A DNA stretch of 64,000 nt, taken from positions 62,001 through 126,000 of the forward strand of contig JAENYT010000003.1 of assembly GCA_016841665.1 (NCBI GenBank). The letters run 5' to 3'. The notes under the pieces were generated by a model. It did no database searches. It saw only the letters and a list, made by a program, of their open reading frames with translations, and was not told the DNA's origin. The DNA is from Methanobacteriota archaeon (lineage in GTDB: Archaea; Halobacteriota; Methanomicrobia; Methanomicrobiales; Methanomicrobiaceae). Of the stretch, positions 3,642-26,692 are shown piece after piece. The stretch's first letter is position 1, and every line of letters starts with the position of its first letter. The position numbers and the translations under genes are program-made.

Positions 3642-3803
3642 ATGGCATTTGAGAAATGTTCTTCCTGCAACGCTCCTCTCTCCGAAGAGGGATGGACGAA
3701 ATTCGAGTGTCCCGGCTGTGGAACCATTATTTACCGCTGTCAGCGCTGCAGACACCAGAGTATCCCTTACGAATGCAAGAAATGCGGATTCAGAGGGCCG
3801 TAA
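3642..3803 (+). CDS. Small zinc-ribbon protein (53 aa)
   Basis: MAFEKCSSCNAPLSEEGWTKFECPGCGTIIYRCQRCRHQSIPYECKKCGFRGP: multiple CxxC pairs, immediately upstream of aEF-1beta. Below the ORF-list size cutoff. Confidence 0.8.
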   Translation: MAFEKCSSCNAPLSEEGWTKFECPGCGTIIYRCQRCRHQSIPYECKKCGFRGP

Positions 3804-3805
3804 GC

Positions 3806-4063
3806 ATGGGAAATGTAGAGATGATCATCAAAATCATGCCCGAATCGCCGGACATTGATCTCGCCGCGATGACGGCAACGATCCGGGAAAAAGTACCGCA
3901 GACTCGCGATGTCCAGGAAGAACCCATCGGTTTCGGCCTCAGTGCCATCAAGGTGCTGGTCGTCGTCCCTGACGAGGCGGGCAAGCCCGATGAGGTTGAA
4001 GCCACGCTCAACGCCATTGAAGGCGTCGAGAGCGTCGAGGTTATCCACACCTCGCTGTCCTGA
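3806..4063 (+). CDS. Translation elongation factor 1-beta (aEF-1beta)
   Basis: MGNVEMIIKIMPESPDIDLAAMTATIREKV...EEPIGFGLSAIKVLVVVPDEAG, archaeal EF-1beta signature. Confidence 0.9.
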   Translation: MGNVEMIIKIMPESPDIDLAAMTATIREKVPQTRDVQEEPIGFGLSAIKVLVVVPDEAGKPDEVEATLNAIEGVESVEVIHTSLS

Positions 4064-4162
4064 ATGCCGATAGCTCCTTTTCTTTTTCAACACTTTTTCC
4101 TGCTATCCGCAACGTCCGAACTGCACCGCGCTCCGAAAACATCCCGCACGCTGCTTCGCAGA

Positions 4163-5116
4163 CTAGGATGCCCGCTCTATCCGGGCGAACACTTCTTCGC
4201 TTATGATCCGGATCGTGTCCACCGAGTGCCTGAACGCTGCGATCTCGTCTTCATGGATGCGGATCGGCACTGGGAACGCGCCCTGCCGGTTGATGCGTGC
4301 CGGCACGCCGATACAGACGTTGCCGATATCGTGCACTTCACTTCTCACGTAGCTTGATACGGTGAGGATCCGGTTTTCGTCGCCGAGAATGGTCCGCACC
4401 AGCGTTCCGATAGCCTCGCCCGGCCCATACACCGTGGCGCCGATTTTGCGGATGATGTCTTCGCCTGCGGTGCGCACATCCTCCACCATCTTCGCGGATG
4501 GCAGGTCAGAGAACGTCGGCAGATTGTTCACGGTGATGCCGCCGATGGTGGTCGCCGACCAGAGGGGCACCATGGTTTCGCCGTGTTCGCCGATGATACG
4601 CGTGTGCACCTCGCTCACATGGACATCAAAATAGCTGGCAATAAGTGATTTCAGCCGCATCGAATCCAGATGCGTTCCCAGCCCGAACACCTGTCGCGCT
4701 TCAAGCCCCGAATACCTGAGCGCTACGGAGGTCATCACGTCCACCGGGTTGGTGACCATAAGAATGATCGCGTCTGGAGCGATATTTCCAATTTTTTTGG
4801 CAATTTCGGAGACGAGAAGGCCGTTTTTGAAGGCGAGATCGTTCCTGTTCTGGCCTGCCTGCCGGGGGATTCCGGCACTCACGATCACGATCTCCGATCC
4901 CCGCAGGTCTTCCATATCCGTACTCCATGAAAGATCCAGATTTCTCCCTTTTGCGGCGAACGAGTCGTAAAAATCGCGGGTCAAACCCTCGAGGATATCC
5001 GCCCTCCCCTCCCTGCCGAGCAACAGAAGTTCGTTCACGTGGGGAATACTCGAGACGGTGTGGGCCGTAAACCGTCCGACGTTGCCGGTCGCTCCAATGA
5101 TGGTTACTTTTGCCAT
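4163..5116 (-). CDS. mdh: Malate/lactate dehydrogenase family, probable malate dehydrogenase
   Basis: MAKVTIIGATGNVGRFTAHTVS..., IVIVSAGIPRQAGQNRNDL, IIGEHGETMVPLWS. Start set at 5116 because upstream sequence is SRP RNA. Confidence 0.9.
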   Translation of the reverse strand: MAKVTIIGATGNVGRFTAHTVSSIPHVNELLLLGREGRADILEGLTRDFYDSFAAKGRNLDLSWSTDMEDLRGSEIVIVSAGIPRQAGQNRNDLAFKNGLLVSEIAKKIGNIAPDAIILMVTNPVDVMTSVALRYSGLEARQVFGLGTHLDSMRLKSLIASYFDVHVSEVHTRIIGEHGETMVPLWSATTIGGITVNNLPTFSDLPSAKMVEDVRTAGEDIIRKIGATVYGPGEAIGTLVRTILGDENRILTVSSYVRSEVHDIGNVCIGVPARINRQGAFPVPIRIHEDEIAAFRHSVDTIRIISEEVFARIERAS

Positions 5117-8809: not shown

Positions 8810-9187
8810 ATGGCTAACAAGGAAATTGATGCGATCAAAGAAACTGAGGCGGATGCTCTCTCTCTTATCCAAAAAGAACGAGAAGAAGCGGGTAAATGGC
8901 TCCATGAGGCAGAGAAGAACGCCGAAGAGTTGATGCGACGCAAACAACACGAAGCACAGGAAGCAGTGCTCAGGATGAAAGTTGAAGCCGAGGAGGCAGC
9001 AATTGTTGAAGCCGAGCGAATCCGGAAAGAAGGAGAGAAAAAGGTCGAGGAAATGAAAAAACAAAGACCTCAGAGACTTCCAATTGCCGTCAAATCCATT
9101 TTAATGCATATTTTGGGTGACAACGGTGCTCTTTCCGCAAAAGATGAAACAGGTATTTATCGGGTTGCACCGAGCGTACCTGAATGA
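8810..9187 (+). CDS. A-type ATP synthase subunit H, operon 1
   Basis: Coiled-coil protein with IKETEADALSLIQKEREEAGKWLHEAEKNAEEL, first gene before subunit I. Confidence 0.8.
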   Translation: MANKEIDAIKETEADALSLIQKEREEAGKWLHEAEKNAEELMRRKQHEAQEAVLRMKVEAEEAAIVEAERIRKEGEKKVEEMKKQRPQRLPIAVKSILMHILGDNGALSAKDETGIYRVAPSVPE

Positions 9188-11105
9188 ATTGCTCTCAGAT
9201 CTGCACGAAGCCGGAATTCTTGAGATCACCAATATCTGGGATGCCGAAAGCAAGCTCTGTGCCACCCTGGATGAGGGCGAAAGGTGTCCTGAAATTGAGA
9301 AATGCGCCGAGAATATCCAGAATATCACCAGCATCATTGAAGTGCTGAGGGAATTCCGTGAGGATGAAGCGGGGTTCCTGCACCTTCTCCTATCCCCCCA
9401 ACCGATCAGGAAAATTTCTGTAGACAAAAAAGATCTCCTCCAGCTCTGCAGGGAAGTAAAAGAGGTCGTATCCGAAGCCGGTGCAGCAACTGACGTGAAA
9501 CGATCGCTTGATGCCCTTCATGCACGCATCGCTGGCTTGCAAGAACAGAGGGAATCGATCGGTCTTGTCATGCCTTTTGAACTGGATCTCGGGTATTTCG
9601 GAGAATCGGAGTTTCTCTACACTGTTCCGGCGGTAATCGACAATTCGGGATATCAGCGCTTTGCCGATAAGATCGACAATGAACTCTTCGATACCTTGCA
9701 TATCTCCAGGATTGCTACGGGATCACAGGCAGTCGTGATCCTTACCACGGTCAGGGCGGAACGGGAGCATCTCGATCGCCTCCTCCAGGAGCAATATATC
9801 AGGATCCTTGAGATTGAACCCTTCGCCGGTTCCCCTCAGGAAAAGGTCGACGCCATCCAGTCTGAAATTAAGGCGCTGTCCCAGAGGGAACTTGAACTCT
9901 TGGACGAGTTGCGAAACATCGATGCTCGCTGCGGTGAACAACTGCTCAGACTCCATGAGGAGCTTGGCATTGAAAAGGAACGCCTGATGACGCACACCCA
10001 TTTTGGCTGGACACATGATACGGTGGTGATAGAAGGTTGGGCCGCGGAAAAGGACTGTGCCCGGTTGCAGGAGATCTGCGATGCGGCGACAGCCGGTCAT
10101 GTATTCTACAAACTCCTCGACCCTGACGGCACGCCGGATAGGGTCCCTGTACGCTATGACAATCCCGGGTGGCTGCGCCCCTTTGAGGCGGTCACCACGA
10201 TGTTTGCCCGCCCCCGGTACGGAGAAGTTGACCCCACCATATTCACTGCGCCCATTCTCATTCTCTTCTTCGCCCTCATGCTGGGAGACGCGGTGTATGG
10301 GCTGTTCATCACCATTATCGCGATAGTGCTGTTCCGAGGTGCAGGAAAGGTCAGCAGGACGGTCCGCGACGTGAGCATCATCCTCATGACTGCGGGTGTG
10401 GCGACAATTATATCGGGAATCCTCCAGGGTGGGTATATGGGCGATTTTCTCCCACGATTTCTGGGAATAGCCCCACCTTTTGTGGTCATCAATGCACTGG
10501 AGCAACCGATCGAATTTCTCCGGATCGCTCTCATCATCGGGATTGTCCAGATAAATCTGGGGCTTTTCATTGCGGCGTACCAGAACATGAGGACGAAGAG
10601 GTATGTGGCTCTCCTCAAGGGCCAGGTATCCTGGTTTTTCCTGCAGCCCGCCGCAGCCGTATTTCTGTTCAGCTTCTTCGGGTGGGGGACATTCCCACCC
10701 CTGGTGATGGCGGTATCGACGATTGCAGCGGTTGTCGGTGTTGGCCTGATCCTGTTCAAGTCCGGTCCTCTCGGATTTTTCGATCTTACAGGATTCCTCG
10801 GGGACTGGCTTTCCTATGCACGCCTTCTCGCCCTCGCGCTGGCAACGGGAGGCATTGCGATGACGGTGAACATTCTTACCCAGATGGTTTCCGGAGATAA
10901 CCCCCTGTTTCTTCTCCTCGCTGCGTTCATTTTTATTGTCGGACAGACGTTTAATTTCGTCCTGCAATCGCTGGGCGCCTTCATCCATTCATTGAGGCTG
11001 CAATTTGTTGAGTTCTTCGGGAAATTCTACACCGGAGGGGGAAGGGAATTCTCCCCCTTTATGGCAAAAAGAGAGATTACCGAGCTCAATGGAGGCGATA
11101 TCTGA
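9117..11105 (+). CDS. A-type ATP synthase subunit I (a subunit), operon 1; GTG start
   Basis: N-terminal MKQVFIGLHRAYLNELLSDLHEAGILEI, multi-TM C-terminal half, GDWLSYARLLALALATGGIAM. Confidence 0.93.
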   Translation: MTTVLFPQKMKQVFIGLHRAYLNELLSDLHEAGILEITNIWDAESKLCATLDEGERCPEIEKCAENIQNITSIIEVLREFREDEAGFLHLLLSPQPIRKISVDKKDLLQLCREVKEVVSEAGAATDVKRSLDALHARIAGLQEQRESIGLVMPFELDLGYFGESEFLYTVPAVIDNSGYQRFADKIDNELFDTLHISRIATGSQAVVILTTVRAEREHLDRLLQEQYIRILEIEPFAGSPQEKVDAIQSEIKALSQRELELLDELRNIDARCGEQLLRLHEELGIEKERLMTHTHFGWTHDTVVIEGWAAEKDCARLQEICDAATAGHVFYKLLDPDGTPDRVPVRYDNPGWLRPFEAVTTMFARPRYGEVDPTIFTAPILILFFALMLGDAVYGLFITIIAIVLFRGAGKVSRTVRDVSIILMTAGVATIISGILQGGYMGDFLPRFLGIAPPFVVINALEQPIEFLRIALIIGIVQINLGLFIAAYQNMRTKRYVALLKGQVSWFFLQPAAAVFLFSFFGWGTFPPLVMAVSTIAAVVGVGLILFKSGPLGFFDLTGFLGDWLSYARLLALALATGGIAMTVNILTQMVSGDNPLFLLLAAFIFIVGQTFNFVLQSLGAFIHSLRLQFVEFFGKFYTGGGREFSPFMAKREITELNGGDI

Positions 11106-11827
11106 TGGCAATGGGGACCGGTACGGTGCTGGTGGTGATCGGTGCCGGCCTCGCGGTGGGACTGTCGGCGATCGGTGCCGGCATCGGAGTCGGCATTGCA
11201 GGTGCGGCTGCTTCAGGTGTCACGGCGGTGGATAAGGATAAATTTGGATTGGCACTCGTGTTTCAGGCATTGCCACAGACCCAGGGGATCTATGGTCTGC
11301 TGGTCGCCATCCTCCTGCTGATGTCCACGGGTATCCTGGGAGGCAACCCGGTTGATGTACCCGTATCGGTGGGGCTTGCCGCGATTGGTGTGGGTATCGC
11401 CGTGGGGCTTGCTGGTCTCTCGGCAATCGGCCAGGGAATTGCGGCAAGCAGCAGTGTGGCAGTTGCGGCGAGAGACCCGGAGATCGTGGGAAAGGGGCTT
11501 GTATTTTCTGTTCTTCCCGAGACGCAGGCAATTTACGGGTTGCTGGTGGCAATTCTCCTCATGGCCTTCAGCGGCATGTTCACCGGGGTCTTTACGATCT
11601 CCGAAGCAGTGGGATTTGCGGCGATTGGGAGCGGTCTTGCAGTCGGGTTTGCGGGATTGTCGGGAATTGGACAGGGTATTACCGCAGGAGCCGGTATTGT
11701 GGCCACCGCGCAACAGCCGGAGGTGATGGGCAGAGCCCTCATCTTCGCGGTGATGTCGGAAACGTTCGCCATATTCGGTCTGCTGATCGCCATACTGATC
11801 ATGTTCGGGAGTGGTCTTACGGGCTGA
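11105..11827 (+). CDS. A-type ATP synthase subunit K (c subunit), triplicated hairpins, operon 1
   Basis: Three internal repeats of about 80 aa: ...LPQTQGIYGLLVAILL..., ...LPETQAIYGLLVAILL..., ...MSETFAIFGLLIAILI.... Confidence 0.95.
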   Translation: MAMGTGTVLVVIGAGLAVGLSAIGAGIGVGIAGAAASGVTAVDKDKFGLALVFQALPQTQGIYGLLVAILLLMSTGILGGNPVDVPVSVGLAAIGVGIAVGLAGLSAIGQGIAASSSVAVAARDPEIVGKGLVFSVLPETQAIYGLLVAILLMAFSGMFTGVFTISEAVGFAAIGSGLAVGFAGLSGIGQGITAGAGIVATAQQPEVMGRALIFAVMSETFAIFGLLIAILIMFGSGLTG

Positions 11828-11846
11828 TGGTGAGGATGGCAGTTGT

Positions 11847-12446
11847 ATGAGTATGGAAACGATCATCGCCAGAATAAAGGCGGACACGGATGCCGAGGTC
11901 GACCGGATCAGAACCGAAGCAGAGGGGCGAAGAAAGGCGATCAATGGTGCGGCACAGATCGAGGCGGACAGGGAGTACGACCGCATCATTGCAGAAGGGA
12001 GGAGAACCATCAAGGTCGTCACCAGCCGGATACTATCCCAGGCCGTCATGGATGCACGCCGCATGGTCCGTGAAGAACGAGAAAAGGGGATTGCGCTCTG
12101 TTTATCCGAAGCAGAGAAAGAGTTGAACTACCGCATACAGACGACAGAATACGAGCGCATTTTGAGAAACCTGATCCAGGAAGGGATCGATGATCTCGGC
12201 GTCGATGAGGGCTTCGTCATCCCAACCGAGCGCGATCGCAGCCTCGTCCAATCCATCCTTTCAACAAGCCCTGAACGGTACGGGAAATTTGTGGTAAACC
12301 CGGAATGTGTTCTTTCCACCGGAGGCGTGGTCATCAGGTCCCGTGACGGAAAAATTACCCTCGATAACACCATAGAAGCGAGAATTGAGCGGTCCAGAAA
12401 CGATCTGGTGTACATCGTCGCCAAAGTGCTCTACCGGGGGGTCTGA
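11847..12446 (+). CDS. A-type ATP synthase subunit E, operon 1
   Basis: MSMETIIARIKADTDAEVDRIRTEAE...VLSTGGVVIRSRDGKITLDNTIEARIERSRNDL. Confidence 0.9.
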   Translation: MSMETIIARIKADTDAEVDRIRTEAEGRRKAINGAAQIEADREYDRIIAEGRRTIKVVTSRILSQAVMDARRMVREEREKGIALCLSEAEKELNYRIQTTEYERILRNLIQEGIDDLGVDEGFVIPTERDRSLVQSILSTSPERYGKFVVNPECVLSTGGVVIRSRDGKITLDNTIEARIERSRNDLVYIVAKVLYRGV

Positions 12447-12449
12447 GCA

Positions 12450-13643
12450 ATGGCAGCGGGTGATTTGCTCGGTCTCTCCATCCTCGATGGCGGTTCGGTG
12501 CCGCCTTCAATCCTGGCAGCGGTCTTCGCCCTCCTGATATTCCTGATCATTTTCCTCACAAAACTGATGGGGTATTTCAAAATATTATTGAATATTGTGA
12601 CGTTTACGTATCCGAATGCGTTTGTTTCGGTGAAGGGCAATCCCTGTATTCAGGAACGCGAGCTGAACCGTCTCATCGAGAGCGGAAGCGTGACCGATGT
12701 GCTGGCACTGCTGAAAGGATATGGATTTGCAATCGATATCGGGGACTATGCGACGATGGAGGAGATCGACCGGGGCCTTGAAGAATATTACCAAAGAGAA
12801 TGCTCGGAAATCGAACGTATGGTCCCCGATTCCGTGCAACCGTTTTTCAGGGTCTTCTGCATGCTCCAGGAAACAGAAGTTCTGAAGGCGGTGATCCGTC
12901 TGAAACATGCGGCGATGGACCCTCAGGAGATGGAACTTCTGCTGAGTCCGGTCGGCATTCTCAGCCAACCTCTTCTTCGAAAAATGGTTGATGCACGGAA
13001 TGTTGATGAGCTGATCCGCCTCCTTCAACCTACCGTCTATGGCCCCCCCCTCCTCAGTGCGCTCCCCGATGCGACAGTGGAGCAGACAACGCTCCCCTTC
13101 GAACATACACTCGACCGATTCGTAGGCGAACAGCTTCGCTCCTCGCTCTCGCAGAGCGATGTCCTCCAGACACCGGCCCTCATGGACTTCGTCATGTTCT
13201 ACTTTGACATCACTAATATCAAAATCGTCCTCAGGGGACTGAGAGATGGGTTGGAAATGGATGTTCTGGCGCACTACCTCCTCCCCGCAGGGCATCATCT
13301 CACGCCAGATGTACTGAAAAGGATGTCCGAAACCAGATCCGTCCAGGATACCCTTGCGCATCTCCAGCACACACCCTATTTCGATGCCTTTGATTCGGCA
13401 ATGGTAGTGTACGAAAAAAGCGGAAGCCTTCAGCCCTTTGAAGCTGCCCTCGACCGTGCACTGCTGGATGCGGTCATCAGGCTCTCGCTGGTCTACCATT
13501 TTGGTCCGGCCTGTTTGATCAAGTATCTCGTCGCGAAAAAGTTCGAACTCCAGAATATCAGGGCCATAGTATGGGGGATTCAGAACCGAATTGCCCCTGA
13601 AACGATGCGAGCACTGCTGATCCGAGAAGGAGGTGCGGCATGA
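12450..13643 (+). CDS. A-type ATP synthase subunit C, operon 1, with N-terminal TM extension
   Basis: Body aligns to operon-2 subunit C (MDFVMFYFDITNIKIVLRGLRDG..); extra N-terminal segment SILAAVFALLIFLIIFLTKLMGYFKILLNIVTF. Confidence 0.88.
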   Translation: MAAGDLLGLSILDGGSVPPSILAAVFALLIFLIIFLTKLMGYFKILLNIVTFTYPNAFVSVKGNPCIQERELNRLIESGSVTDVLALLKGYGFAIDIGDYATMEEIDRGLEEYYQRECSEIERMVPDSVQPFFRVFCMLQETEVLKAVIRLKHAAMDPQEMELLLSPVGILSQPLLRKMVDARNVDELIRLLQPTVYGPPLLSALPDATVEQTTLPFEHTLDRFVGEQLRSSLSQSDVLQTPALMDFVMFYFDITNIKIVLRGLRDGLEMDVLAHYLLPAGHHLTPDVLKRMSETRSVQDTLAHLQHTPYFDAFDSAMVVYEKSGSLQPFEAALDRALLDAVIRLSLVYHFGPACLIKYLVAKKFELQNIRAIVWGIQNRIAPETMRALLIREGGAA

Positions 13644-13969
13644 AGGTGGCGGTCATCGGCGATGTGGACGTAACCTCAGGATTCGGATTGATCGGGGTGC
13701 ATTCCCGCTTCATCGCCAAAAGAAAGAATGAAGTGGAAGCCGCTCTTTCCGCATGCCTCGATGATCCGGACATGGGCGTGGTCATCGTGCTCGCCCCCCT
13801 CGCAGACATGGTCCGGGATTCGATCACCAGAATCCAGGCCACACGGGTATACCCGCTGATCGTTGAAATTCCGGGAAAGGCCGGCCATACCCTTGAGGAA
13901 GCCGCGATAACCCGGTTGTTGGGAAAAGCGATCGGCATCTCGTTGCAAAGCGGAGGACTGCAGCAATGA
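13640..13969 (+). CDS. A-type ATP synthase subunit F, operon 1
   Basis: [24 protein letters not shown]...[13 protein letters not shown]. Confidence 0.9.
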
Positions 13970-15765
13970 AAAATGAAGGAACCATCGTCATGGTGACCGG
14001 GCCTGTCGTGACCGCCGATACTATGACCGGGTCGAGGATGTACGAACTCGTGAAGGTGGGGCATGAACGGCTCATCGGGGAGATCATTGAACTGGAGGAG
14101 GATGTCGCGACCATTCAGGTCTATGAAGAGACGACCGGGATCAAGCCGGGTGAGCCGGTCGTGGGAACAGGGATGTCGTTGTCCGTAGAACTGGGACCGG
14201 GGTTGCTCGGAACCATCTATGACGGAATCCAGCGCCCCCTGCCGCTCCTGCACGAGGAGAGCGGATTTTTTATCAAGCGTGGTATCCAGGTCCCTTCGCT
14301 TGACAGGGAGAGGGCCTGGGAGTTCTCCCCCGTCGTGTGTGCCGGGGATGCCGTCGAGCCGGGGGATGAACTCGGGCTTGTTGCCGAAACGAATACCATA
14401 TCCCACAGGGTTCTTGTTCCCTCCGGGATGAAGGGCACGGTCACGGAAATCGTGCCGGCAGGACGCTACACCATCGAAGACATCATCGCGCGGGTGAAGG
14501 TGGACCATGATATTGAACCTGTTCGTATGATGCACCGCTGGCCGGTACGCAAATCCAGGCCCTTTAAGGAGAAACTGGAGCCAAAGACTCCCCTGATCAC
14601 AGGGCAGCGAGTGATCGATACGTTTTTCACCATGGCAAAAGGCGGTACGGCGGCAGTTCCTGGCCCCTTTGGATCAGGAAAGACGGTTGTGCAGCAGCAA
14701 CTGGCAAAATGGGTGGATGCGGACATCATCGTCTACGTGGGGTGCGGCGAGCGGGGGAATGAGATGGCGGACGTACTCCGTGAATTTCCCGGTCTCGAAG
14801 ACCCGCGAACCGGTGAGCCACTGATGAAACGGACGGTGCTCATCGCCAATACCAGCAACATGCCCGTGGCGGCCCGTGAGGCCAGTGTCTATACGGGTAT
14901 CACCATCGCGGAGTATTATCGTGATATGGGGTATGATGTGGCCCTGATGGCAGATTCCACCTCACGCTGGGCAGAAGCATTGCGGGAGATATCAGGGAGG
15001 CTGGAGGAGATGCCGGGTGAAGAGGGGTACCCGGCATACCTTGCCTCACGCCTCGCGGATTTCTATGAGCGGGCAGGAAAAGTCCTCACGTTGGGCAGGG
15101 GAGAGCGCACCGGATCGATCTCGGTAATCGGTGCGGTGAGTCCGCCGGGTGGGGATTTTTCCGAACCGGTGACGCAGAACACGCTCCGGATTGCCAAGGT
15201 GTTCTGGGCACTGGATGCGGATCTTGCCAACAGGAGGCATTTCCCGGCAATCAACTGGCTGGAATCCTATTCCCTGTATGGTGGAGAGGTGAGCGACTGG
15301 TGGCACGAGCACCAGGGCAGCGACTGGGATGCCATGAGAAAACGAATGATGGGTATTCTCCAGAAAGAAAGTGAACTTGAGGAGATTGTGCAGCTTGTAG
15401 GCTCGGACGTTCTCCCGGATGCCGACAAACTTGTGCTTCTTGAGGCTGAGATTCTCAGGGAGAGTTTCCTTTTCCAGAACGCCTTTCATGCGGTTGACAC
15501 GTTCTGCTCACCTGCCAAGCAGTACCGCATGATGAAAATGCTCCACCGGTTTGATGAGCTGGCAAAAAACGCGCTCACCGAGGGCGTTGCGTTTGAAAAA
15601 ATCAACGAGATACCCGTACGAAGCAGCATTGCCCGCATGGCGAGGATTCCGGAGGATACCTACGAAGGAGCCTTTGGTGGTATCGAGAAGGAGATGCACG
15701 AGCAGTTCCTCGCGCTCGCCCATCCAGAAACCGAAGGCCATGAAGGGATTGTGGTGGACAAATGA
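13966..15765 (+). CDS. A-type ATP synthase catalytic subunit A, operon 1
   Basis: [74 protein letters not shown]. Confidence 0.97.
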
Positions 15766-17165
15766 TGCGTTCCAGTAACAGGGAGTATTCAACCGTTTCG
15801 AAGGTCAGCGGACCGTTGATTGTAGTGCACCGGATCAGCGATGTGGCGTACGGTGAGGTGGCCGAGATCAGGCTCCCATCCGGGGAAAAACGACTGGGAC
15901 AGGTGCTGGAAGCACGGAAAGACGCTGCCGTCGTGCAGGTGTTCGGTGGGACCAGGGATCTCGATACCGACAAAACCTCCATCCGGTTTACGGGCTCGTC
16001 GCTGAAAATGGCTGCATCGGAGGAGATGCTCGGGCGCATCCTTGATGGCGCCGCCCAACCGCTGGACGGGGGAGAGGGCGTGATCCCGGAAGTGATGCTT
16101 GATATCAATGGATATCCTCTCAACCCGTATTCGAGGGACTTCCCACAGGATTTCATCGAGACCGGCATTTCCTGCGTTGACGGGATGAATACCCTGGTCC
16201 GGGGGCAGAAACTGCCCATATTCTCGGGAGCCGGACTCCCCCACAACCAGCTTGCCGCCCAGATCACACGGCAGGCGAGAGTTCTCGGGGAACGAGAAGA
16301 ATTCGCCGTGATATTCGCAGCGATGGGAATTACCCACGAGGAAGGGAACTTCTTTGTCAGGGAGTTTCAGAATACCGGTGCCCTCGCGCGCACGGTGATC
16401 TTCCTCAACCTTGCCGATGATCCGGTCATCGAGCGGATTATCACCCCCAGGCTTGCCCTTACCGCCGCGGAGTTTCTGGCGTTCGAGAAGAACATGCACG
16501 TCCTCGTCATCCTCACCGATATGACCAACTACTGTGAGGCATTACGGGAGATTGCCGCCGCACGCGAAGAGGTGCCCGGGCGACGCGGCTACCCGGGGTA
16601 CATGTACACCGATCTCGCCTCACTGTACGAGCGTGCGGGACGTATCAGGGGAAAATCCGGCTCGATCACCCAGATGCCCATCCTCACCATGCCGGACGAC
16701 GATATCACCCATCCCATCCCCGACCTCACGGGCTACATCACCGAGGGGCAGATCGTGCTCTCCCGCGATCTCCACCGGAAAGGTATCTATCCGCCCATCG
16801 ATGTCCTCCCCTGCCTCTCCCGCCTCATGCAGGGTGGGATCGGTCCGGAAAGGACGCGTGAAGACCACCCCGATGTCAATACCCAGCTCTATGCCGCATA
16901 TGCACGGGGAAGAAGACTGCAGAGCCTTGTCGCGGTTGTCGGCGAGGAGGGCCTGAGCCACACCGATCGCCAGTATCTCACATTCTCCGACCTTTTTGAG
17001 AGGGAATTCATCAACCAGGAGTATGCAGCAGGAAGGAACATCGAGGAAACGCTCGATACCGCATGGTCGCTCCTCTCACTTCTCCCGGAATCGGAGCTAA
17101 AAAGGATTGATCCCCGGTTTATTGCCCGCTATCATCCGAACATGGGGGGTGAGCGCCATGCATAG
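15762..17165 (+). CDS. A-type ATP synthase subunit B, operon 1
   Basis: [63 protein letters not shown]. Confidence 0.97.
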
Positions 17166-17799
17166 AAAGGGGATACGCGGGGTCCGGCCGACGCGGATCG
17201 AACTGCTGAAACTGAGAAAACGGGAGCTCCTGGCACAGAAAGGGCATGATCTGCTGGAAGAAAAACGCGATGCACTTGTCATCGAATTTTTCCGCATGGT
17301 TGAAGACCTCCGTGAACGGCGACGCAGGCTCGATATGGCGATGGGGGAAGCGTATAAAAAACTGGAAGTGGCGCAAATGACGGTAGGAAACCGGAAACTG
17401 CGAGAAATTTCCTACGGTGTTCCCCGAATGGGTGAGATAGAGATCGATGTGCGGCACCTGATGGGAGTCGGCATGCCGGTGATCCATGCGGCCGGGCCGT
17501 CCCCGTCCTCCCGGATGCGGGGATACGGGTATGCCTTCACCTCTGCCACGGTGGATGAGGTTGCGGACAGGTTCGCGCGGGTTTTTGAGGAGGTGCTCTG
17601 CCTGGCGGAGATGGAAGGTTCCCTGCTGCGGCTGGCGCAGGAGATTGAGCGGACCAAACGGAGAGTGAATGCCCTTGAATCAATCGTGATCCCGCAGCTG
17701 CAGGCAACGCAGAAACACATTGAATCCCACCTTGAGGAGCTGGAACGTGAAGACATCTTCAGAAGAAAGCGGACAAAGATGCTGCTGCAGAAAGCCTGA
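17158..17799 (+). CDS. A-type ATP synthase subunit D, operon 1
   Basis: [38 protein letters not shown]...[36 protein letters not shown]. Confidence 0.95.
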
Positions 17800-18493: not shown

Positions 18494-19210
18494 TCATTCC
18501 GTTTCAATTGCTATTTCCTGGAGTACAGACTGTGGAAGGCCGGCGATTTTTTCCGTTTTTATCTTTTTCTTGCGGTCCAGAATTTTTTTCACTTTTTTCA
18601 GTCTGAATAAATCCTCGCGTTCACGTTCTTCGATGGTGATCCTGATGTATTTTGCCTGTTTTTTCAATTCAGGAATCATCACCTGCTCGAGAGCGTTCAC
18701 CCGTCTCCTGGTCATCTGGATCTCTCCGCCGAGCCTCCTCAACGCGGTTTCAGTCTCTGCAAGCCCGATGATGAGATCCAGTTCCCGCTCAAATTTTTCC
18801 GCCGTCTCGTCGATGCGTCCGCTCACCCCGATGATGCTGTATCCCCGCTCGCAAATGGTCCGGGACACGCTTCGCTTCTCGATGATCGGCACCGGCACGC
18901 CCATGATATTTCTCCCCTTGATGTCCAGGCTTATGAGTCGTTTTGATGCAAATGATGCCGATGCCAGTGCAACCGAATCGTCGACGGCCTGCGCCGCAAG
19001 CAGAGAGCGTCGTGCGGCTTCGGAAAGGATCTCGAGTTCATTGCGGGATGTGGACACCGTCTCCATGATCTGGAAGAACTCCTGGATGAGTGCATCCATC
19101 TTCTCCTTCAGGAGATCCCTTCCCTGCTCTGCAAGACGAATCTGTGCGTTCTTTTTAATGAGCTCCATCCGCGTCGGATTAACCTGTTCCACGTCGTGCC
19201 CCTCCTGCAT
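18494..19210 (-). CDS. A/V-type ATPase subunit D, operon 2
   Basis: [37 protein letters not shown]...[41 protein letters not shown]. Confidence 0.93.
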
Positions 19211-20591
19211 AGTGGGGATGGTATTTCTGGATGAACTCCACCTTTACCCTCTTTAATTCGTACTCGGGAAGCAGTGAGAAGAGATCCCATGCGATCTCGA
19301 GGGTCCTCTCGATGCTCCTGTCCTCGTTCCCCTGGGAAACGAACTCCTTTTCGAATTTTTCCGCAAAGTTCAGGTATTTCTTGTCCACCTCGGTCAGCGC
19401 TTCTTCTCCGACGATCGACACCAGTCTGCGGAGATCTCGCCCGTAGGCATAGGATGCATAGAGCTGGTCGGCCACATTCCGGTGGTCTTCCCGGGTTTTC
19501 CCCGGTCCTATCCCCAGGTTCATCAGGCGGGAGAGGCAGGGGAGGACATCGATGGGCGGTTGCGCACCGCGCCTGAACAGGTCGCGGGAGAGCACGATCT
19601 GCCCCTCGGTGATGTAGCCCGTAAGGTCGGGGACCGGATGGGTGATATCGTCGTCCGGCATGGTGAGGATGGGGATCTGGGTGATCGATCCCTTGTTGCC
19701 CGTAATGCGCCCGGCCCGCTCATACAGCGAGGCGAGATCGGTGTACATGTACCCCGGGTAGCCCCGCCGCCCGGGCACCTCTTCCCGTGCGGTTGAGATC
19801 TCCCTCAGCGCTTCACAGTAGTTGGTCATATCCGTCAGGATGACCAGCACATGGAGACCGTGGGCGAATGCGAGGTATTCCGCAGTGGTAAGGGCGCACC
19901 GGGGCGTGGCAATCCGTTCAATGGTCGGGTCGTCGGCGAGGTTCATGAAAAACACCACCCTCTCCAGCGCTCCGCTGCGTTCGAAATCCCGCATGAAGAA
20001 GGACGCCTCCTTGTGGGTGATCCCCATCGCCGCGAATACCACGGCGAATTTCTCTCCTTCTCCCCGCACCTTTGCCTGCCGGGCGATCTGGGCTGCCAGT
20101 TCGTTGGCGGGGAGTCCGGCTCCCGAGAAGATGGGCAGTTTCTGCCCCCGGACCAGGGTATTCAGCGCATCGATTGCCGACACGCCCGTCTGGATGAAGT
20201 CGGAGGGTTTATCACGGGCATAGGGATTGATGGGCATGCCATTGATGTCCAGATAGTCCTCGGGGATAATATCCGGACCCCCGTCCCGGGGCCTTCCGAT
20301 CCCGTTCAGGACTCTCCCGAGCATGCCATACCCCACGAAGATCTTCGGCGGATCGCCGGTGAACCTGACCTTCGTTTTCAGGTCATCAATCCCGCTGGTT
20401 CCTTCGTACACCTGGACGATTGCCACATCTCCGGATATGTCGAGCACCTGTCCTGTTCTCTCTTCCCCGTCGGGTGTCGTGATTCTTGCGATCTCACCGT
20501 AGGAAACACCTTTTGGACCTTCGACAAAGATGAGAGGTCCCGAGACGTAATTGACCGTCTGATATTCCTTCGAAACAAGGCTCTGCTGCAT
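19179..20591 (-). CDS. A/V-type ATPase subunit B, operon 2
   Basis: [73 protein letters not shown]. Confidence 0.97.
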
Positions 20592-22339
20592 TATCCTCCC
20601 CCTCCTATCCCCTTGATTCCTGTGTTGATTTCCTCAATGATCCCCTTGATTTCGGAGACCTCCTCTATCTCCTTCATCCTCGCAATACGGGTCTTGAGGG
20701 GCAGGTCCAGGATCTGTTTCATGGACACCCCCCGCTCCATGGCATCGATGATGGCATCGTGGAAGAAGAGGATGACTTTCAGCATCCAGTACTGCTTTTG
20801 AAGGGAGCAGAACGAATCGACCGGGTCGTAGGCACTCTGCTGCAGGAAATCTTCCCGTATCATCCGTGTAATCTCCAGAATTGCCTTTTCATGTTCCGGC
20901 AATGCGTCCGGCCCCACGAGCTGGACGATTTCCTGCAGTTCCACCTCCTTTTGCAGGAGATACATGTTTCTGTCCCGCAGATCCTTCCAGTCTTCGGCGA
21001 CGTTCTCGACAAACCATTCGTGCACCATATCCAGGTAGAGCGAATAGCTCTTGATCCAGTTGATTGCCGGAAAGTGGCGCCGGTTTGCGAGGCTGGTATC
21101 CAGCGCCCAGAATGTGCCTGCAATACGGAGGGTGTTCTGGGTGATGGGTTCCGAGAAATCCCCTCCCGGCGGACTCACCGCGCCCACGATGGTCACGGAT
21201 CCGGTCCGCTCTTCAGACCCCATGCAGACAACCCGGCCGGCCCGTTCGTAGAATGCAGCAAGTCTCGCCGCAAGATAGGCCGGATACCCCTCTTCTCCCG
21301 GCATCTCCTCGAGCCGCCCGGAGACCTCCCGCAATGCTTCACCCCACCGCGACGTCGAATCGGCCATGAGCGATACGTCGTATCCCATGTCCCTGAAATA
21401 TTCACCGATGGTGATTCCCGTATAAATTGAGGCTTCCCGGGCTGCAACAGGCATGTTCGACGTATTCGCGATCATGACGGTGCGGTGAATCAGCGGTTTT
21501 CCGGTCCTCGGATCGACCAGTTCGGGGAATTCGGTGAGCACGTCGGTCATCTCGTTTCCCCGCTCCCCGCACCCGATGTACACGACGATCTGGGTGTCCG
21601 CCCATTTTGCGAGGGTCTGTTCGGATACGGTCTTTCCGGTTCCGAAGCCGCCGGGGATCATTGCCGTTCCCCCTTTCACCAGCGGGAACATGCTGTCGAA
21701 CACACGCTGTCCCGTGAGCAGCGGCACTGTGGGGTCCAGCTTTCTCGTATAGGGGCGGTTCTTCCGGACAGGCCAGCGCTGCATCATGGTCAGCTCGGTG
21801 CCGTCCTCGAGCACGCAGACAGTGTCCTCGACCGTGCACGGTCCTTCGTGGATGTGCTGCACGACGCCGGAGACGGTGGGGGGAACCATGATCCGGTGTT
21901 CGATGTGGTACTCCTGCACCGTGCCGAGGATATCTCCCGGCCCGACGGAATCTCCTTTCCTGACCGCAGGAGAGAAGTCCCATTTCCGTGATCTGTCGAG
22001 CCCCGGAACGGTAATTCCCCGGGAGATGAAACTCCCGCTCATTTCCGTCAGTGCCGGGAGCGGTCTCTGGATTCCGTCGTATATGGAGGAGAGCAGTCCC
22101 GGTCCCAGCTCCACGCTCAGCGGGACATCGGTTGTCGTCACCTTCTCCCCGACTTTGAGCCCTTCCGTGTTCTCGTACACCTGTACAACGGCCTCGTCGC
22201 CGTCGAGTCTGATGATCTCGCCGTTCAGTTCCTCGTCGCCCACAAGGACCACGTCGTACATCCTTGATCCTTTCATGTTCCGTGCAACGACCACAGGACC
22301 GGAAATTCTTGCCACCAATCCCTCTGCCATGTCCTTCAC
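20591..22339 (-). CDS. A/V-type ATPase catalytic subunit A, operon 2
   Basis: [89 protein letters not shown]. Confidence 0.97.
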
Positions 22340-22653
22340 CCTACCACGATGTTGTACCCGATCGCCCTTCTGAGCAGTTGCTCGATGTACCGGGACCGTT
22401 CAGCCCCCCTCGTTCCCACGGGAATAGGAATGATGATGGGCCGGAAGGTCTTCTCGATTCTATCCATCAGCCGTTCATCGACCATTGCCATGAAATCCTC
22501 GTTCACCGCGACGATGCCCGTATCGTCCTTCAGCAGCAGGGTGGGGAGCAGTTTTCGTGCTTCTTCAAGGTCGGATATTTCCATTACATCCACCCCCGCC
22601 AGACGAAATCCCGGAGCGGTGTCCGGATCAGTCACCACGACAAATCTATACAT
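22336..22653 (-). CDS. A/V-type ATPase subunit F, operon 2
   Basis: [32 protein letters not shown]...[10 protein letters not shown]. Confidence 0.88.
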
Positions 22654-23707
22654 AGAGCACCTCCTCCCGGATCTCCTCTTCCGGCAGGTAGGCGCCTTTA
22701 CAGTGGGAAATGATCCGGATATTGGTGATTTCGTTGTTTTTTGCCGCGATATAGCCGATTGTTCCGGCAATGCTCAGCGGATCGCCTTTGAACATCCCGA
22801 TCCCCTGTTCGATGAGATATCTGTCGAGCTCTTTCTCATATTCCGAAATTAATTCATTTCCCTGTCTTTTTTTCGTCAATGTGCTGAGAAACGAATACGG
22901 TGTATCCTTCAACGCCGCTCTGGCAGCGCGAACGGATGCGGTGTTCAGGAGATCGAGCAATGCCTGCATATCCAGGATCTTGCCACCGTCGATGAGTACG
23001 TTCTTTCCGTCCTCGGGTTTCACCCCGTCCCGGATAAGCCGCAGAACGCTCTTGATATTGACTACGTCGATTTCCATGGTGATAAGATCCCGGACATTGC
23101 GGTCATCGATGGATCTCCTGGCAAGGAGCTGGAGAGCACGCTCGTAATAGAACCGATCGAGGGCGTATTCCAGGATGGCGAGATCCTTTTTTTCCGCGTA
23201 TTTGCCGAAACGTTCCGTCAATGGCCGTGCATAGGCAATATCCCACGTTGCGAGGAGATCGATCACGCCCCGGACATCTGGCTGCTTGATCAGTTCTATC
23301 AGGGTCACCTCGTCCAGCTGTCCTGCCGGCACCAGGCAGGCCAGAATCTCATCTCCGGGGACATGGACATTTTTTCCCCTGATAATGGTCTTTATATTCT
23401 GTATATCCCATTTTTCGAGGAATATCCGTACGTGTTTCTCAAACGCCTCGTCCCTGACCAGGGATAATATCAGCCGGTATGTCTGCACGAGATTGAAGCG
23501 CAGTGCCTGATCGATGAGGCGTATTCCTGAAGACTGGACGCTCGCCTTTTCGATCGCCTCGTGATAGGGTGTTTTTTCGAGCTCGGTGATGATCGCATCG
23601 ATATCAGGCTTGTTCATCAGTTTCTCAAAGAACTCCCGATCCATCAGATGGCGCTTCATGCCCCGCACCCGTGCATTGACGTACTCGATGTACACGCTAA
23701 TCACCAA
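22646..23707 (-). CDS. A/V-type ATPase subunit C, operon 2
   Basis: YIEYVNARVRGMKRHLMDREFFEKLMNKPDIDAIITELEKTPY...LITMEIDVVNIKSVLRLIRDG. Confidence 0.92.
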   Translation of the reverse strand: MVISVYIEYVNARVRGMKRHLMDREFFEKLMNKPDIDAIITELEKTPYHEAIEKASVQSSGIRLIDQALRFNLVQTYRLILSLVRDEAFEKHVRIFLEKWDIQNIKTIIRGKNVHVPGDEILACLVPAGQLDEVTLIELIKQPDVRGVIDLLATWDIAYARPLTERFGKYAEKKDLAILEYALDRFYYERALQLLARRSIDDRNVRDLITMEIDVVNIKSVLRLIRDGVKPEDGKNVLIDGGKILDMQALLDLLNTASVRAARAALKDTPYSFLSTLTKKRQGNELISEYEKELDRYLIEQGIGMFKGDPLSIAGTIGYIAAKNNEITNIRIISHCKGAYLPEEEIREEVLYV

Positions 23708-24314
23708 AGAGCGTCGAAAAAACCTCCAGTCTCATCGTTTCCTTTGACCGTTCAAGCCTCGATTCGAGGGTGTTGTGGACGGTGATGCGTCCATCCGGCG
23801 AACTGGCGTCCACCCCGCCAATGCACGTAATGTCCTGGAGAATCTCGGATTTCAGGCCGAGCTCCTCCACAATGCTCCGGCAAAGATCCACATCCCTTGG
23901 GTCGATGTGCAGTCTAATGCGCTGCTCATCCAGTGTCTGCACCGCTTCTTTGAGCAGGAGTCGAAATATCTTCTCGTAGGAGGCTGTGTGACGGATCCCT
24001 TCCAGATCGCGCCGTGCCCTGCCGAATGCCAGATCGAATACCCGATTCTGCTCCTGGGTCGTGGTATTTTTTGCCTCATTTGAGGCTTCATAATGCTGCA
24101 CTATTCGTTCCCGCTCAACCGTTCTGGCCGCCTGTTCCATGTGGTGCCGCACTATCGTCTCTGCTTTCTTGCCTGCCTCTTCCCGTAACTTTTCCGCCTC
24201 TTTCTCACTGCTCTTCTTGATCCGACTGATCTCTTCTGAGGACTGTTCCTCCATTTCCCGCTTCAACTGCTCAAGTCTCATAACCTCATCCACAATTCTC
24301 AGGCTTGTCCTCAC
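23697..24314 (-). CDS. A/V-type ATPase subunit E, operon 2
   Basis: SSEEISRIKKSSEKEAEKLREEAGKKAETIVRHHMEQAARTVERERI...GGVDASSPDGRITVHNTLESRLERSKETM. Confidence 0.9.
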   Translation of the reverse strand: MRTSLRIVDEVMRLEQLKREMEEQSSEEISRIKKSSEKEAEKLREEAGKKAETIVRHHMEQAARTVERERIVQHYEASNEAKNTTTQEQNRVFDLAFGRARRDLEGIRHTASYEKIFRLLLKEAVQTLDEQRIRLHIDPRDVDLCRSIVEELGLKSEILQDITCIGGVDASSPDGRITVHNTLESRLERSKETMRLEVFSTLFGD

Positions 24315-24407
24315 ATATGCATCCGAGATTAAAATGGAGAATTACACATGGAATGGCTGCCCTTTTCAGGTTCACACCTGAACGAATGACCCGCCACCGT
24401 GCCCTTC

Positions 24408-24620
24408 TCACAGGATCAATATCATAGCGGCTATCACGAATCCTAAAATTACCATCGTTTCCGGGATCGCTTCAAGAATTATCACCGATCCCGTAAGTTC
24501 AGGATTTTCTGCAATTGTTCCCGCTCCGGCGGCTCCGATACGACTCTGAGCCCACGCAGTACTGATTGCGCAGACACTGATTGCAATTGCCGCTCCGATT
24601 GCTACTCCCATCTCGACCAT
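24408..24620 (-). CDS. A/V-type ATPase subunit K (c subunit), single hairpin, operon 2
   Basis: MVEMGVAIGAAIAISVCAISTAWAQSRIGAAGAGTIAENPELTGSVIILEAIPETMVILGFVIAAMILIL: two TM helices with PET. Confidence 0.95.
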   Translation of the reverse strand: MVEMGVAIGAAIAISVCAISTAWAQSRIGAAGAGTIAENPELTGSVIILEAIPETMVILGFVIAAMILIL

Positions 24621-24769
24621 GCTAAAACCACCAGATATACAATTATTTATTATTAATAGCTCTCATATAAGAACATAATGATTAATAGTTATAATTAAAG
24701 TTTGGTCCCTCTACCCACCGTCCTGTCCGAGGGGTGCGATGAAAAAAATCGTTATCGGGGGTAAAAGCT

Positions 24770-26692
24770 CTAATGGGTGAGCTCCTGTCGTTTAAAGGGG
24801 TCGTAGAACTTGCCGCCCCCTTCGTAAAATTTTGAAAAGCACTCCACCACATGGAGACGTATTGAATGCAGTGAAGGGCTGAACATTGCCAGAACAATAT
24901 TCAGGGTATGCAGAAGCATTGCCACCACCACCCCCAGAAGCAAGATGCCGAGCGCGTCCCCGAGGGTATTTGCCACCACTGCCAGAATGACGGACGCCAT
25001 GCCAATCGCCATAAGTCGTGCATAGGATAAAATGTTCCCAACGGTTCCCATGATTTCGAGCAATCCCATCGGTCCGGCGCCGTAGATGATCAGGGGCACC
25101 CCCATGATGAGTGCACCGAAGCCCGATTGGAGCAGAACCGGGGGGAGCGCCCCGGCAGCCGCGCCTAATATGAGGATCAGACCGGAAATTGCGAATATCA
25201 TGCCTGCTTTTTCGGCAGCATGCTTTATGCTCCGCATGGTGATGGCATTCATGATCCCGAGGCCCAGCCCCAAAAATACATGGACGACCCCGACCGCCAC
25301 GGCAATAATCAGCATGGGCAGCATCGCCTCCATCCGGTTCCAGGTGATCCCCATGAGGTGGACAGGATGGATCCAGCCCATCATCTCACCCAGATCCCCG
25401 AAAAACTCTCCGTAGAGGAATCCGAAGAAGATGGTGGGAATAGAGCAGATGATCATGATGTTCATGAGGCTCCGCAACCAATCGAGATCGGAAAACCGCC
25501 GTTTCATGAAGAGGGCGAATCCCAGGATCACCAGGCCATAGCCAATATCCCCTACCATGAGGCCGAAAAAAAAGGGGAAGAAGATGGCGAGAACCGGACT
25601 CGGGTCCACTTCAAGGTATTTGGGGGGTCGTACCAGCTGCATGAAGAACTCAAAGGGTTTGACAAGCCTCGAGTTTTCGTAGAATGTGGGGGCCTGATTA
25701 TAGTCTTCACGGCTCAGGCTGAGTTCGGTGACGACCACCCGATCCCCGAACTTACCTTCAAGCGCCTCCCTGGTCGCGGTCAGGTACTTCTCGGGCACCC
25801 AGCCCATGAACATGCAGGTATGGTCCGTATACCCGAAGTGACCGAAGGCTTCAATCTCCTTGTTTTTATCGAGAAGAACCTTTTCCAGGACGGAGAGCTC
25901 AGGATACCACTCATCCGACAGAGACGCAAGCTGCGTATTGACGGACTCCATTTCCGCAGTCGCCTGACGGATCTGCTCATCGATCAGCACCAGCACTTCG
26001 TTGAAAGGCCTGCCCACGTATTCGGGAGGAAGGCGGACTTCATTGACATTCTTGGAAAAGATAAACGAATGGACGGCATCGGAGTATCGCTTGCTGAATA
26101 CGGTGATGGTTGCGAGCGTATACTCATCGATCTCGGCAGATATCAGCTCAAACTGGTTGTTGGTGATGTTCACCAGCTCATCCTCGATGAGTGCGATTAC
26201 ATCCTCAAATTCCTTCTGGATCAGGAGAACCGTTACCTCAAATCCCTTCATTAACGGCAGTTGCTCCTCCAAAGGCTGGATTTTTCGAATGGTCTTTTCA
26301 TACCTTATCAGGGAGGCAATCCTGAACTGGAGATCGCTCTTTTTCGCAGCCAGATCCCGCGTTCTGGATTCCAGTGTGTGAACTACCTGATTCACTCGCT
26401 CGACAAGATTGCCATGGTCCATCCAGTACAGGTTTTCATAGATCTTTCGTTGATGCTCCCAGAGGGTCTTGATGGCGGGAAGAGTTCGTATAAGCCCGCC
26501 GATTTTTACCAGCGACGCAGTGATGTCATCTCCGTATCCGCTCTCCCATTTTTCAAGGTTGATGGTCTCATGGGAAAGCCGGTCGGTCACGTCCTCAAGG
26601 TGCAGGGTCCCTGTATGGTACAGCACGTCCACGATATCATGGAATTCCCTTTTCGGGCCGATGACCAGAATTCCATTCATCCTATGAAGCAT
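24770..26692 (-). CDS. A/V-type ATPase subunit I (a subunit), operon 2
   Basis: MNGILVIGPKREFHDIVDVLYHTGTLHLEDV..., GNILSYARLMAIGMASVILAVVANTLG, SLHSIRLHVVECFSKFYEGGGKFYDPF. Confidence 0.95.
   Translation of the reverse strand: MLHRMNGILVIGPKREFHDIVDVLYHTGTLHLEDVTDRLSHETINLEKWESGYGDDITASLVKIGGLIRTLPAIKTLWEHQRKIYENLYWMDHGNLVERVNQVVHTLESRTRDLAAKKSDLQFRIASLIRYEKTIRKIQPLEEQLPLMKGFEVTVLLIQKEFEDVIALIEDELVNITNNQFELISAEIDEYTLATITVFSKRYSDAVHSFIFSKNVNEVRLPPEYVGRPFNEVLVLIDEQIRQATAEMESVNTQLASLSDEWYPELSVLEKVLLDKNKEIEAFGHFGYTDHTCMFMGWVPEKYLTATREALEGKFGDRVVVTELSLSREDYNQAPTFYENSRLVKPFEFFMQLVRPPKYLEVDPSPVLAIFFPFFFGLMVGDIGYGLVILGFALFMKRRFSDLDWLRSLMNIMIICSIPTIFFGFLYGEFFGDLGEMMGWIHPVHLMGITWNRMEAMLPMLIIAVAVGVVHVFLGLGLGIMNAITMRSIKHAAEKAGMIFAISGLILILGAAAGALPPVLLQSGFGALIMGVPLIIYGAGPMGLLEIMGTVGNILSYARLMAIGMASVILAVVANTLGDALGILLLGVVVAMLLHTLNIVLAMFSPSLHSIRLHVVECFSKFYEGGGKFYDPFKRQELTH

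What the first reader, a model, noticed from the sequence alone, without database searches (positions are those of the whole stretch)
11105..11827. Triplicated c subunit with an ion-binding carboxylate missing from hairpin 1
Subunit K contains three hairpins of ~80 aa. The residue at the ion-binding position is Gln in hairpin 1 (LPQTQ, codon 11276-11278), Glu in hairpin 2 (LPETQ, 11519-11521) and Glu in hairpin 3 (MSETF, 11759-11761). Hairpin 1 also lacks the helix-1 Gln (GAG instead of GQG), while hairpins 2 and 3 keep it. A similar triplication with two functional sites is known from Methanocaldococcus jannaschii. The Q plus ET pattern is consistent with Na+ coordination. Pairing this rotor with a single-hairpin rotor in the adjacent operon is the notable point.
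Basis: partly seen in the sequence, partly recalled or inferred. Interest (0 to 1): 0.75.

Follow-up and report, generated by a model that had tools for sequence, protein, structure and literature searches.

The report
Three-hairpin sodium rotor of archaeal ATPase
A methanogen carries an extra ATP-making/ion-pumping motor whose ring protein is three fused hairpins with only two ion-binding sites; this type is known, but its relatives show a strict rule by which each fused chain of n hairpins carries n-1 sites.

Summary
It is under purifying selection, and hairpin 1 lacks the acid in 139 of 140 multi-hairpin relatives, so it is not an error. K belongs to a complete A-type ATPase operon facing a second one with a single-hairpin K; the genome has a third on another contig.
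Best reading: an ordinary member of the Methanocaldococcus-type triplicated rotor, probably Na+-coupled, with two complete E. hirae-like sites per chain. Hairpin 1 gives Thr59/Gln60/Tyr63 to the site of Glu139; hairpin 2 gives Thr140/Gln141/Tyr144 to that of Glu219; hairpin 3 has lost the donor residues (F221, F224), so the joint between chains carries no site. The same rule (first hairpin donor only, last acceptor only) holds in relatives with 2, 3, 4, 6 and 13 hairpins.
Pairing with a single-hairpin rotor is general in Methanomicrobiales and reported for Methanospirillum hungatei. Ring size, ion and direction remain untested.

The parts
11105..11827 (+). atpK: three-hairpin rotor subunit K (240 aa)
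   Evidence: NF004913 over cut-off; AlphaFold2 pLDDT 92.8; best PDB match 2bl2, E. hirae K ring
11276..11293 (+). hairpin 1 donor half-site: Q58 in place of the acid, then T59, Q60, Y63
   Evidence: aligned to LPGTQGLYG of E. hirae K (2bl2)
11189..11191 (+). Val29, hairpin 1 residue at the helix-1 Gln position (no acceptor half-site)
11432..11536 (+). hairpin 2: acceptor Q110, E139 (11519-11521) and donor T140, Q141, Y144
   Evidence: invariant in alignment A1
11672..11776 (+). hairpin 3: acceptor Q190, E219 (11759-11761); donor residues replaced by F221 and F224
8810..9187 (+). AhaH-like subunit of the triplicated-rotor operon
   Evidence: TIGR02926 E 7e-8, below curated cut-off
9117..11105 (+). 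subunit I (a): conserved SYARL and HSLRL arginines present
11847..12446 (+). subunit E (start codon inferred)
12450..13643 (+). subunit C
13640..13969 (+). subunit F
13966..15765 (+). catalytic subunit A, Walker A GPFGSGKT intact
15762..17165 (+). subunit B
17158..17799 (+). subunit D (start codon inferred)
   Evidence: NF001545 over cut-off
24408..24620 (-). single-hairpin K of the convergent second A-type operon (Q25, E54; Met and Leu at the donor Gln/Tyr positions)
18494..26692 (-). second, convergent A-type ATPase operon (I K E C F A B D, read from 26692 down to 18494)
   Evidence: conserved beside the triplicated operon in L007-L010

Best explanation
The gene encodes the rotor of a Na+-coupled A/V-type ATPase. 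Each K chain is an arc of three hairpins. A complete site sits between neighbouring hairpins of one chain: the first supplies a backbone carbonyl, Thr, Gln and a supporting Tyr; the next supplies its helix-1 Gln and the Glu. So T59/Q60/Y63 + Q110/E139 form site 1, and T140/Q141/Y144 + Q190/E219 form site 2. Hairpin 1 has no acceptor half and hairpin 3 no donor half, so the joint between two K chains carries no site. The ring therefore carries two ions per three hairpins: 8 per turn (2.7 per ATP) for 4 K chains, or 10 per turn (3.3 per ATP) for 5. It is an accessory enzyme beside two A-type ATPases with single-hairpin, proton-type (or mixed) rotors, and most likely exchanges ATP against the Na+ gradient made by methyltransferase Mtr. 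Shown: sequence, conservation, operon, half-site rule, rotor fold. Inferred: Na+ as the ion, site geometry in the ring, ring size, direction.
For: Half-site bookkeeping in 140 distinct multi-hairpin K with 2, 3, 4, 6 and 13 hairpins: first hairpin lacks the acid in 139, last lacks the donor Gln in 138, 278 of 301 middle hairpins are complete Q,E-T,Q,Y (per-locus table, earlier set). Exceptions support pairing of hairpin i with i+1. L082 (13 hairpins, all with acid) keeps the donor in its last hairpin, as a self-closing ring needs. L063 lost the acid in hairpins 6 and 10, and the donor Tyr just before each. L046/L053 lost the donor in hairpin 3 and the helix-1 Gln in hairpin 4. Best solved relative is the E. 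hirae Na+ K ring 2bl2; its Na+ ligands (L61, T64, Q65 of hairpin 1, Q110, E139 of hairpin 2, Tyr68) are described in PMC2359735. AlphaFold2 model: pLDDT 92.8, all-helical hairpins. Methanocaldococcus genomes have only this K, so such a rotor can serve an organism as its only rotary ATPase. Mtr genes are present in the window's genome.
Against: No ion, ring or enzyme activity was measured for this or any 3-hairpin K with these tools, and no 3-hairpin ring is among the solved structures found. Ion choice is predicted from ligands; complete ligand sets can also carry H+ (PMC2359735). Relatives are not independent samples, and they were found with this K as the query. The structure model is a monomer made from 13 sequences, so inter-chain contacts were not modelled.
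Confidence: 0.75

Rival explanations
1. Same rotor and same two sites, but proton-coupled or of mixed Na+/H+ use in the cell.
For: Na+-type c rings can carry H+ when Na+ is scarce (PMC2359735). This genome's single-hairpin rotors keep the helix-1 Gln, Glu and Thr yet lack the donor Gln/Tyr, so partial sets are tolerated.
Against: Both sites have all the side-chain ligands of the E. hirae Na+ site plus its Tyr, conserved in nearly all relatives.
Confidence: 0.18
2. The missing carboxylate is compensated: in the ring the Gln58 hairpin forms a third working site with residues of another chain.
For: Gln58 is well conserved rather than drifting in the 3-, 4- and 6-hairpin proteins, so it may have a role.
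Against: Its helix-1 Gln is missing too, and the hairpin before it in the ring (hairpin 3) has lost the donor Gln and Tyr; a site there would have none of the key ligands. In 2-hairpin relatives the position is Met, Gly or Gln, so no fixed chemistry is kept there. The E. hirae hairpin 1, with Gly at this position, gives only donor ligands (PMC2359735).
Confidence: 0.03
3. Sequencing error or decaying gene.
For: Gln CAG is one base from Glu GAG.
Against: dN/dS about 0.05; acid missing from hairpin 1 in 139 of 140 relatives across archaeal phyla; intact operon.
Confidence: 0.01
4. A statement about direction, compatible with the best explanation: the enzyme runs mainly as an ATP-driven Na+ exporter, while a single-hairpin enzyme makes the ATP.
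For: Fewer sites per hairpin lower the ion/ATP ratio, as in V-type pumps (general knowledge). The genome has two other A-type enzymes with full-density rotors.
Against: In Methanocaldococcus the same kind of K is the only rotor, so synthesis must be possible there.
Confidence: 0.4

Closest known systems
Methanocaldococcus jannaschii triplicated proteolipid/subunit K (Ruppert et al. 1999, from my own knowledge; triplication mentioned in PMC2359735)
   Same: Three hairpins, acid missing from hairpin 1, acids in 2 and 3. Methanocaldococcus-type K read here (L047, L068) have the same half-site pattern and 62% identity.
   Different: Loops between hairpins longer here. In Methanocaldococcus it is the only rotor; here it is one of three.
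Enterococcus hirae NtpK (PDB 2bl2), two-hairpin Na+ V-ATPase rotor
   Same: Hairpin 1 donor only (LPGTQGLYG), last hairpin acceptor only (VETYAIL); same Na+ ligands, even the same numbering Q110/E139.
   Different: Two hairpins and one site per chain; ring of 10 chains (50 chains in 5 entries). Here an extra middle hairpin with both halves.
Methanospirillum hungatei JF1 three A1Ao clusters Aha1-3 (PMC4704411)
   Same: Three A-type ATPases in one genome, two of them adjacent. Methanospirillum-type loci L022 and L027 have a 3-hairpin K operon followed by a single-hairpin operon.
   Different: Tandem orientation in those loci, convergent here; the section of that paper read here does not discuss hairpin number or ion sites.
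Methanopyrus kandleri 13-hairpin K (Lolkema and Boekema 2003, cited in PMC2359735)
   Same: Fused hairpins with the same motifs.
   Different: All 13 hairpins carry the acid; L082 found here is of that kind, others (L063, L067) lack it in hairpin 1.

Membership tests
[quoted passage not shown]
   NF004913 over cut-off
[quoted passage not shown]
   same in L047 and L068
A-type (archaeal) ATP synthase | Complete operon H I K E C F A B D with intact catalytic subunits | tested here: met
   H only weakly matched; A, B and D over a subfamily or equivalog cut-off, the other subunits significant but below the curated cut-offs
Na+-coupled V/A-type rotor (E. hirae-like) | Complete Na+ ligand set (Leu C=O, Thr, Gln, Gln, Glu, Tyr) | tested here: met
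   By sequence for both sites, against PMC2359735
Na+-coupled V/A-type rotor (E. hirae-like) | Na+ binding and Na+-dependent activity | not testable with these tools
   Needs biochemistry
E. hirae-type two-hairpin K | Two hairpins, one site per chain | tested here: not met
   Three hairpins, two sites; works like it, not a member

The most novel reading that the evidence does not exclude
In this rotor family every chain end costs one ion site, so the number of hairpins fused per chain sets the gear ratio. Hairpin number has changed at least 12 times on the A- and I-subunit trees but only 2, 3, 4, 6 and 13 were found; 3, 4 and 6 all fit a ring of 12 hairpins, which would give 8, 9 and 10 ions per turn. 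Fusion or loss of middle hairpins would then be an evolutionary gear shift at constant ring size.
Probability: 0.25. Interest if true: 0.75.

Novelty: new member of a known kind. Interest (0 to 1): 0.45.

Why it matters
The number of ions per ATP decides how small an energy gradient an archaeon can live on. Here one genome appears to hold rotors of two ion types and two site densities, and the relatives give a natural series (2, 3, 4, 6, 13 hairpins per chain, n-1 sites) in which ring size and gear ratio can be measured directly. The half-site rule also turns any new K sequence into a prediction of how many ions it carries per chain.

Tried and rejected
Helix-1 columns from the first alignment were off in hairpin 1; replaced by the fixed 29-residue spacing. 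Regex location of the acid (some rows) and trimmed alignment columns misplaced positions; superseded. Apparent 5-hairpin proteins (L031, L045, L056, L081) are cut by contig ends, split or frameshifted, so no 5-hairpin K is claimed. The first-hairpin Gln as an error was rejected by the relatives. A terminator/promoter scan between the convergent operons found nothing. Papers on the M. jannaschii and P. furiosus proteolipids were looked up by DOI and are not in the library; they are cited from memory.

Full report
Observation. Window 11105-11827 (+) translates to 240 aa with LPQTQ, LPETQ and MSETF at the three ion positions. Codons: Q58 11276-11278, E139 11519-11521, E219 11759-11761, exactly as reported. 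The helix-1 Gln is Q110 and Q190 in hairpins 2 and 3. The protein is over the curated cut-off of NCBIfam NF004913, the 220-aa subunit K. Purifying selection is strong in all three hairpins (dN/dS 0.04-0.10).

Surroundings. The gene lies in a complete A-type ATPase operon, H I K E C F A B D, at 8810-17799 (+). It faces a second complete operon at 18494-26692 (-) whose K has one hairpin. The genome (a Methanoculleus-like draft genome, nearest K 96% identical in L007) holds a third complete A-type operon with a single-hairpin K on contig C46. The three operons are old paralogues: A subunits 60-62% identical; C, E, F and I subunits 20-33%. Mtr, the Na+-pumping methyltransferase of methanogens, is encoded (MtrA family).

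Relatives. A scan of species genomes gave 78 loci; further searches added genomes of the window's phylum and of the phyla of L023 (Thermoplasmata) and L047 (Methanocaldococcus). Complete multi-hairpin K chains have 2, 3, 4, 6 or 13 hairpins. Among 140 distinct chains the first hairpin lacks the acid in 139 and the last lacks the donor Gln in 138; 278 of 301 middle hairpins have the full set. The two outliers are informative: L082 is a 13-hairpin chain with every acid and an intact last donor, as a one-chain ring would need; L124 has a three-hairpin chain with no acid at all, next to a single-hairpin gene with a full site.

How it works. In the solved E. hirae Na+ ring, Leu61, Thr64 and Gln65 of hairpin 1 and Gln110 and Glu139 of hairpin 2 hold the ion, with Tyr68 supporting (PMC2359735). 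That ring protein is the best match both by sequence and by fold (2bl2), and the AlphaFold2 model is confident (pLDDT 92.8). Mapped here, T59/Q60/Y63 serve E139, and T140/Q141/Y144 serve E219. Hairpin 3 has F221 and F224 where the donor Gln and Tyr should be, matching the missing acceptor in hairpin 1 of the next chain. Losses elsewhere fall on the partner halves of one site: hairpins 5/6 and 9/10 of L063 and 3/4 of L046 and L053. This supports donor i to acceptor i+1 from sequence alone. So a chain of n hairpins has n-1 sites and the chain-chain joint has none. Ring size is not known: 4 chains give 8 ions per turn, 5 chains give 10.

Ion. The donor Gln and the Tyr, rather than Gln plus Glu-Thr, separate the Na+ type. 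Both complete sites have them. The single-hairpin rotors of this genome have Met/Leu and Ile/Phe instead, which the criterion of PMC2359735 would read as proton type where the donor position is aliphatic. That is a prediction; promiscuous archaeal rotors are known (own knowledge).

Pairing. Among 119 Methanomicrobiales genomes, the subunit I of this operon type occurs in 37 and that of the adjacent single-hairpin operon in 51 (E below 1e-130); both occur in 21, and in 10 of these the two lie next to each other on one contig. Genomes with an intact multi-hairpin K always have at least one single-hairpin K by hairpin counts; three fragmentary cases (G081, G082, G083) cannot be judged. The convergent layout is shared by L007-L010; a tandem layout is found in Methanospirillum and Methanolinea loci. 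M. hungatei JF1 was reported in 2016 to have three A-type clusters, two adjacent (PMC4704411). So the pairing is real and conserved, but not new.

Hairpin number. Trees of subunits A and I need at least 12 and 13 changes of hairpin number (quick trees, several long branches, so approximate). First and last hairpins match their counterparts in other 6-hairpin proteins (first 61-93%, last 62-87%) better than they match other hairpins, while middle hairpins resemble one another. The caps are kept and the middle is expanded or contracted. A close relative of the window's operon has 4 hairpins (L013). That 3, 4 and 6 all divide 12 hints at a 12-hairpin ring, but the solved two-hairpin relative has 20 hairpins (10 chains), so a constant number of about 10 sites is an equal contender for 2, 3 and 6.

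Verdict. Correct observation, mostly correct interpretation, a new member of a known kind. The useful additions are the half-site rule, its spread over 2 to 13 hairpins, the third ATPase, and the correction on what marks Na+.

Noticed in passing
L124 (G127 contig C1), minus strand, about positions 3664-4620: A three-hairpin K without any carboxylate (LPQTQ, IPQTQ, LPQTQ; Asn at the helix-1 Gln in hairpins 2 and 3) is followed directly by a single-hairpin K with a complete site: probably a mixed rotor of acid-free and acid-bearing chains.
   Followed up: partly
L063:8572-11908: 13-hairpin K of a Woesearchaeota draft genome with the acid lost in hairpins 1, 6 and 10, and the donor Tyr lost in the hairpins just before 6 and 10.
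   Followed up: partly
L006 (G000 contig C46), 3652-11672: Third complete A-type ATPase operon of the window's genome, single-hairpin K.
   Followed up: yes
G000:C17:52863-54314: Two neighbouring MtrA-family open frames, suggesting a duplicated mtrA.
   Followed up: no
L081:8452-11170: Methanogenium cariaci record in which the ATPase genes (I, K, A, B) are split over several frames, suggesting decay or sequencing errors.
   Followed up: no
L046, L053, L129, L130: Six-hairpin K with a damaged site between hairpins 3 and 4: donor Gln/Tyr to Pro/Thr in hairpin 3 and helix-1 Gln to Leu in hairpin 4, the acid kept.
   Followed up: partly
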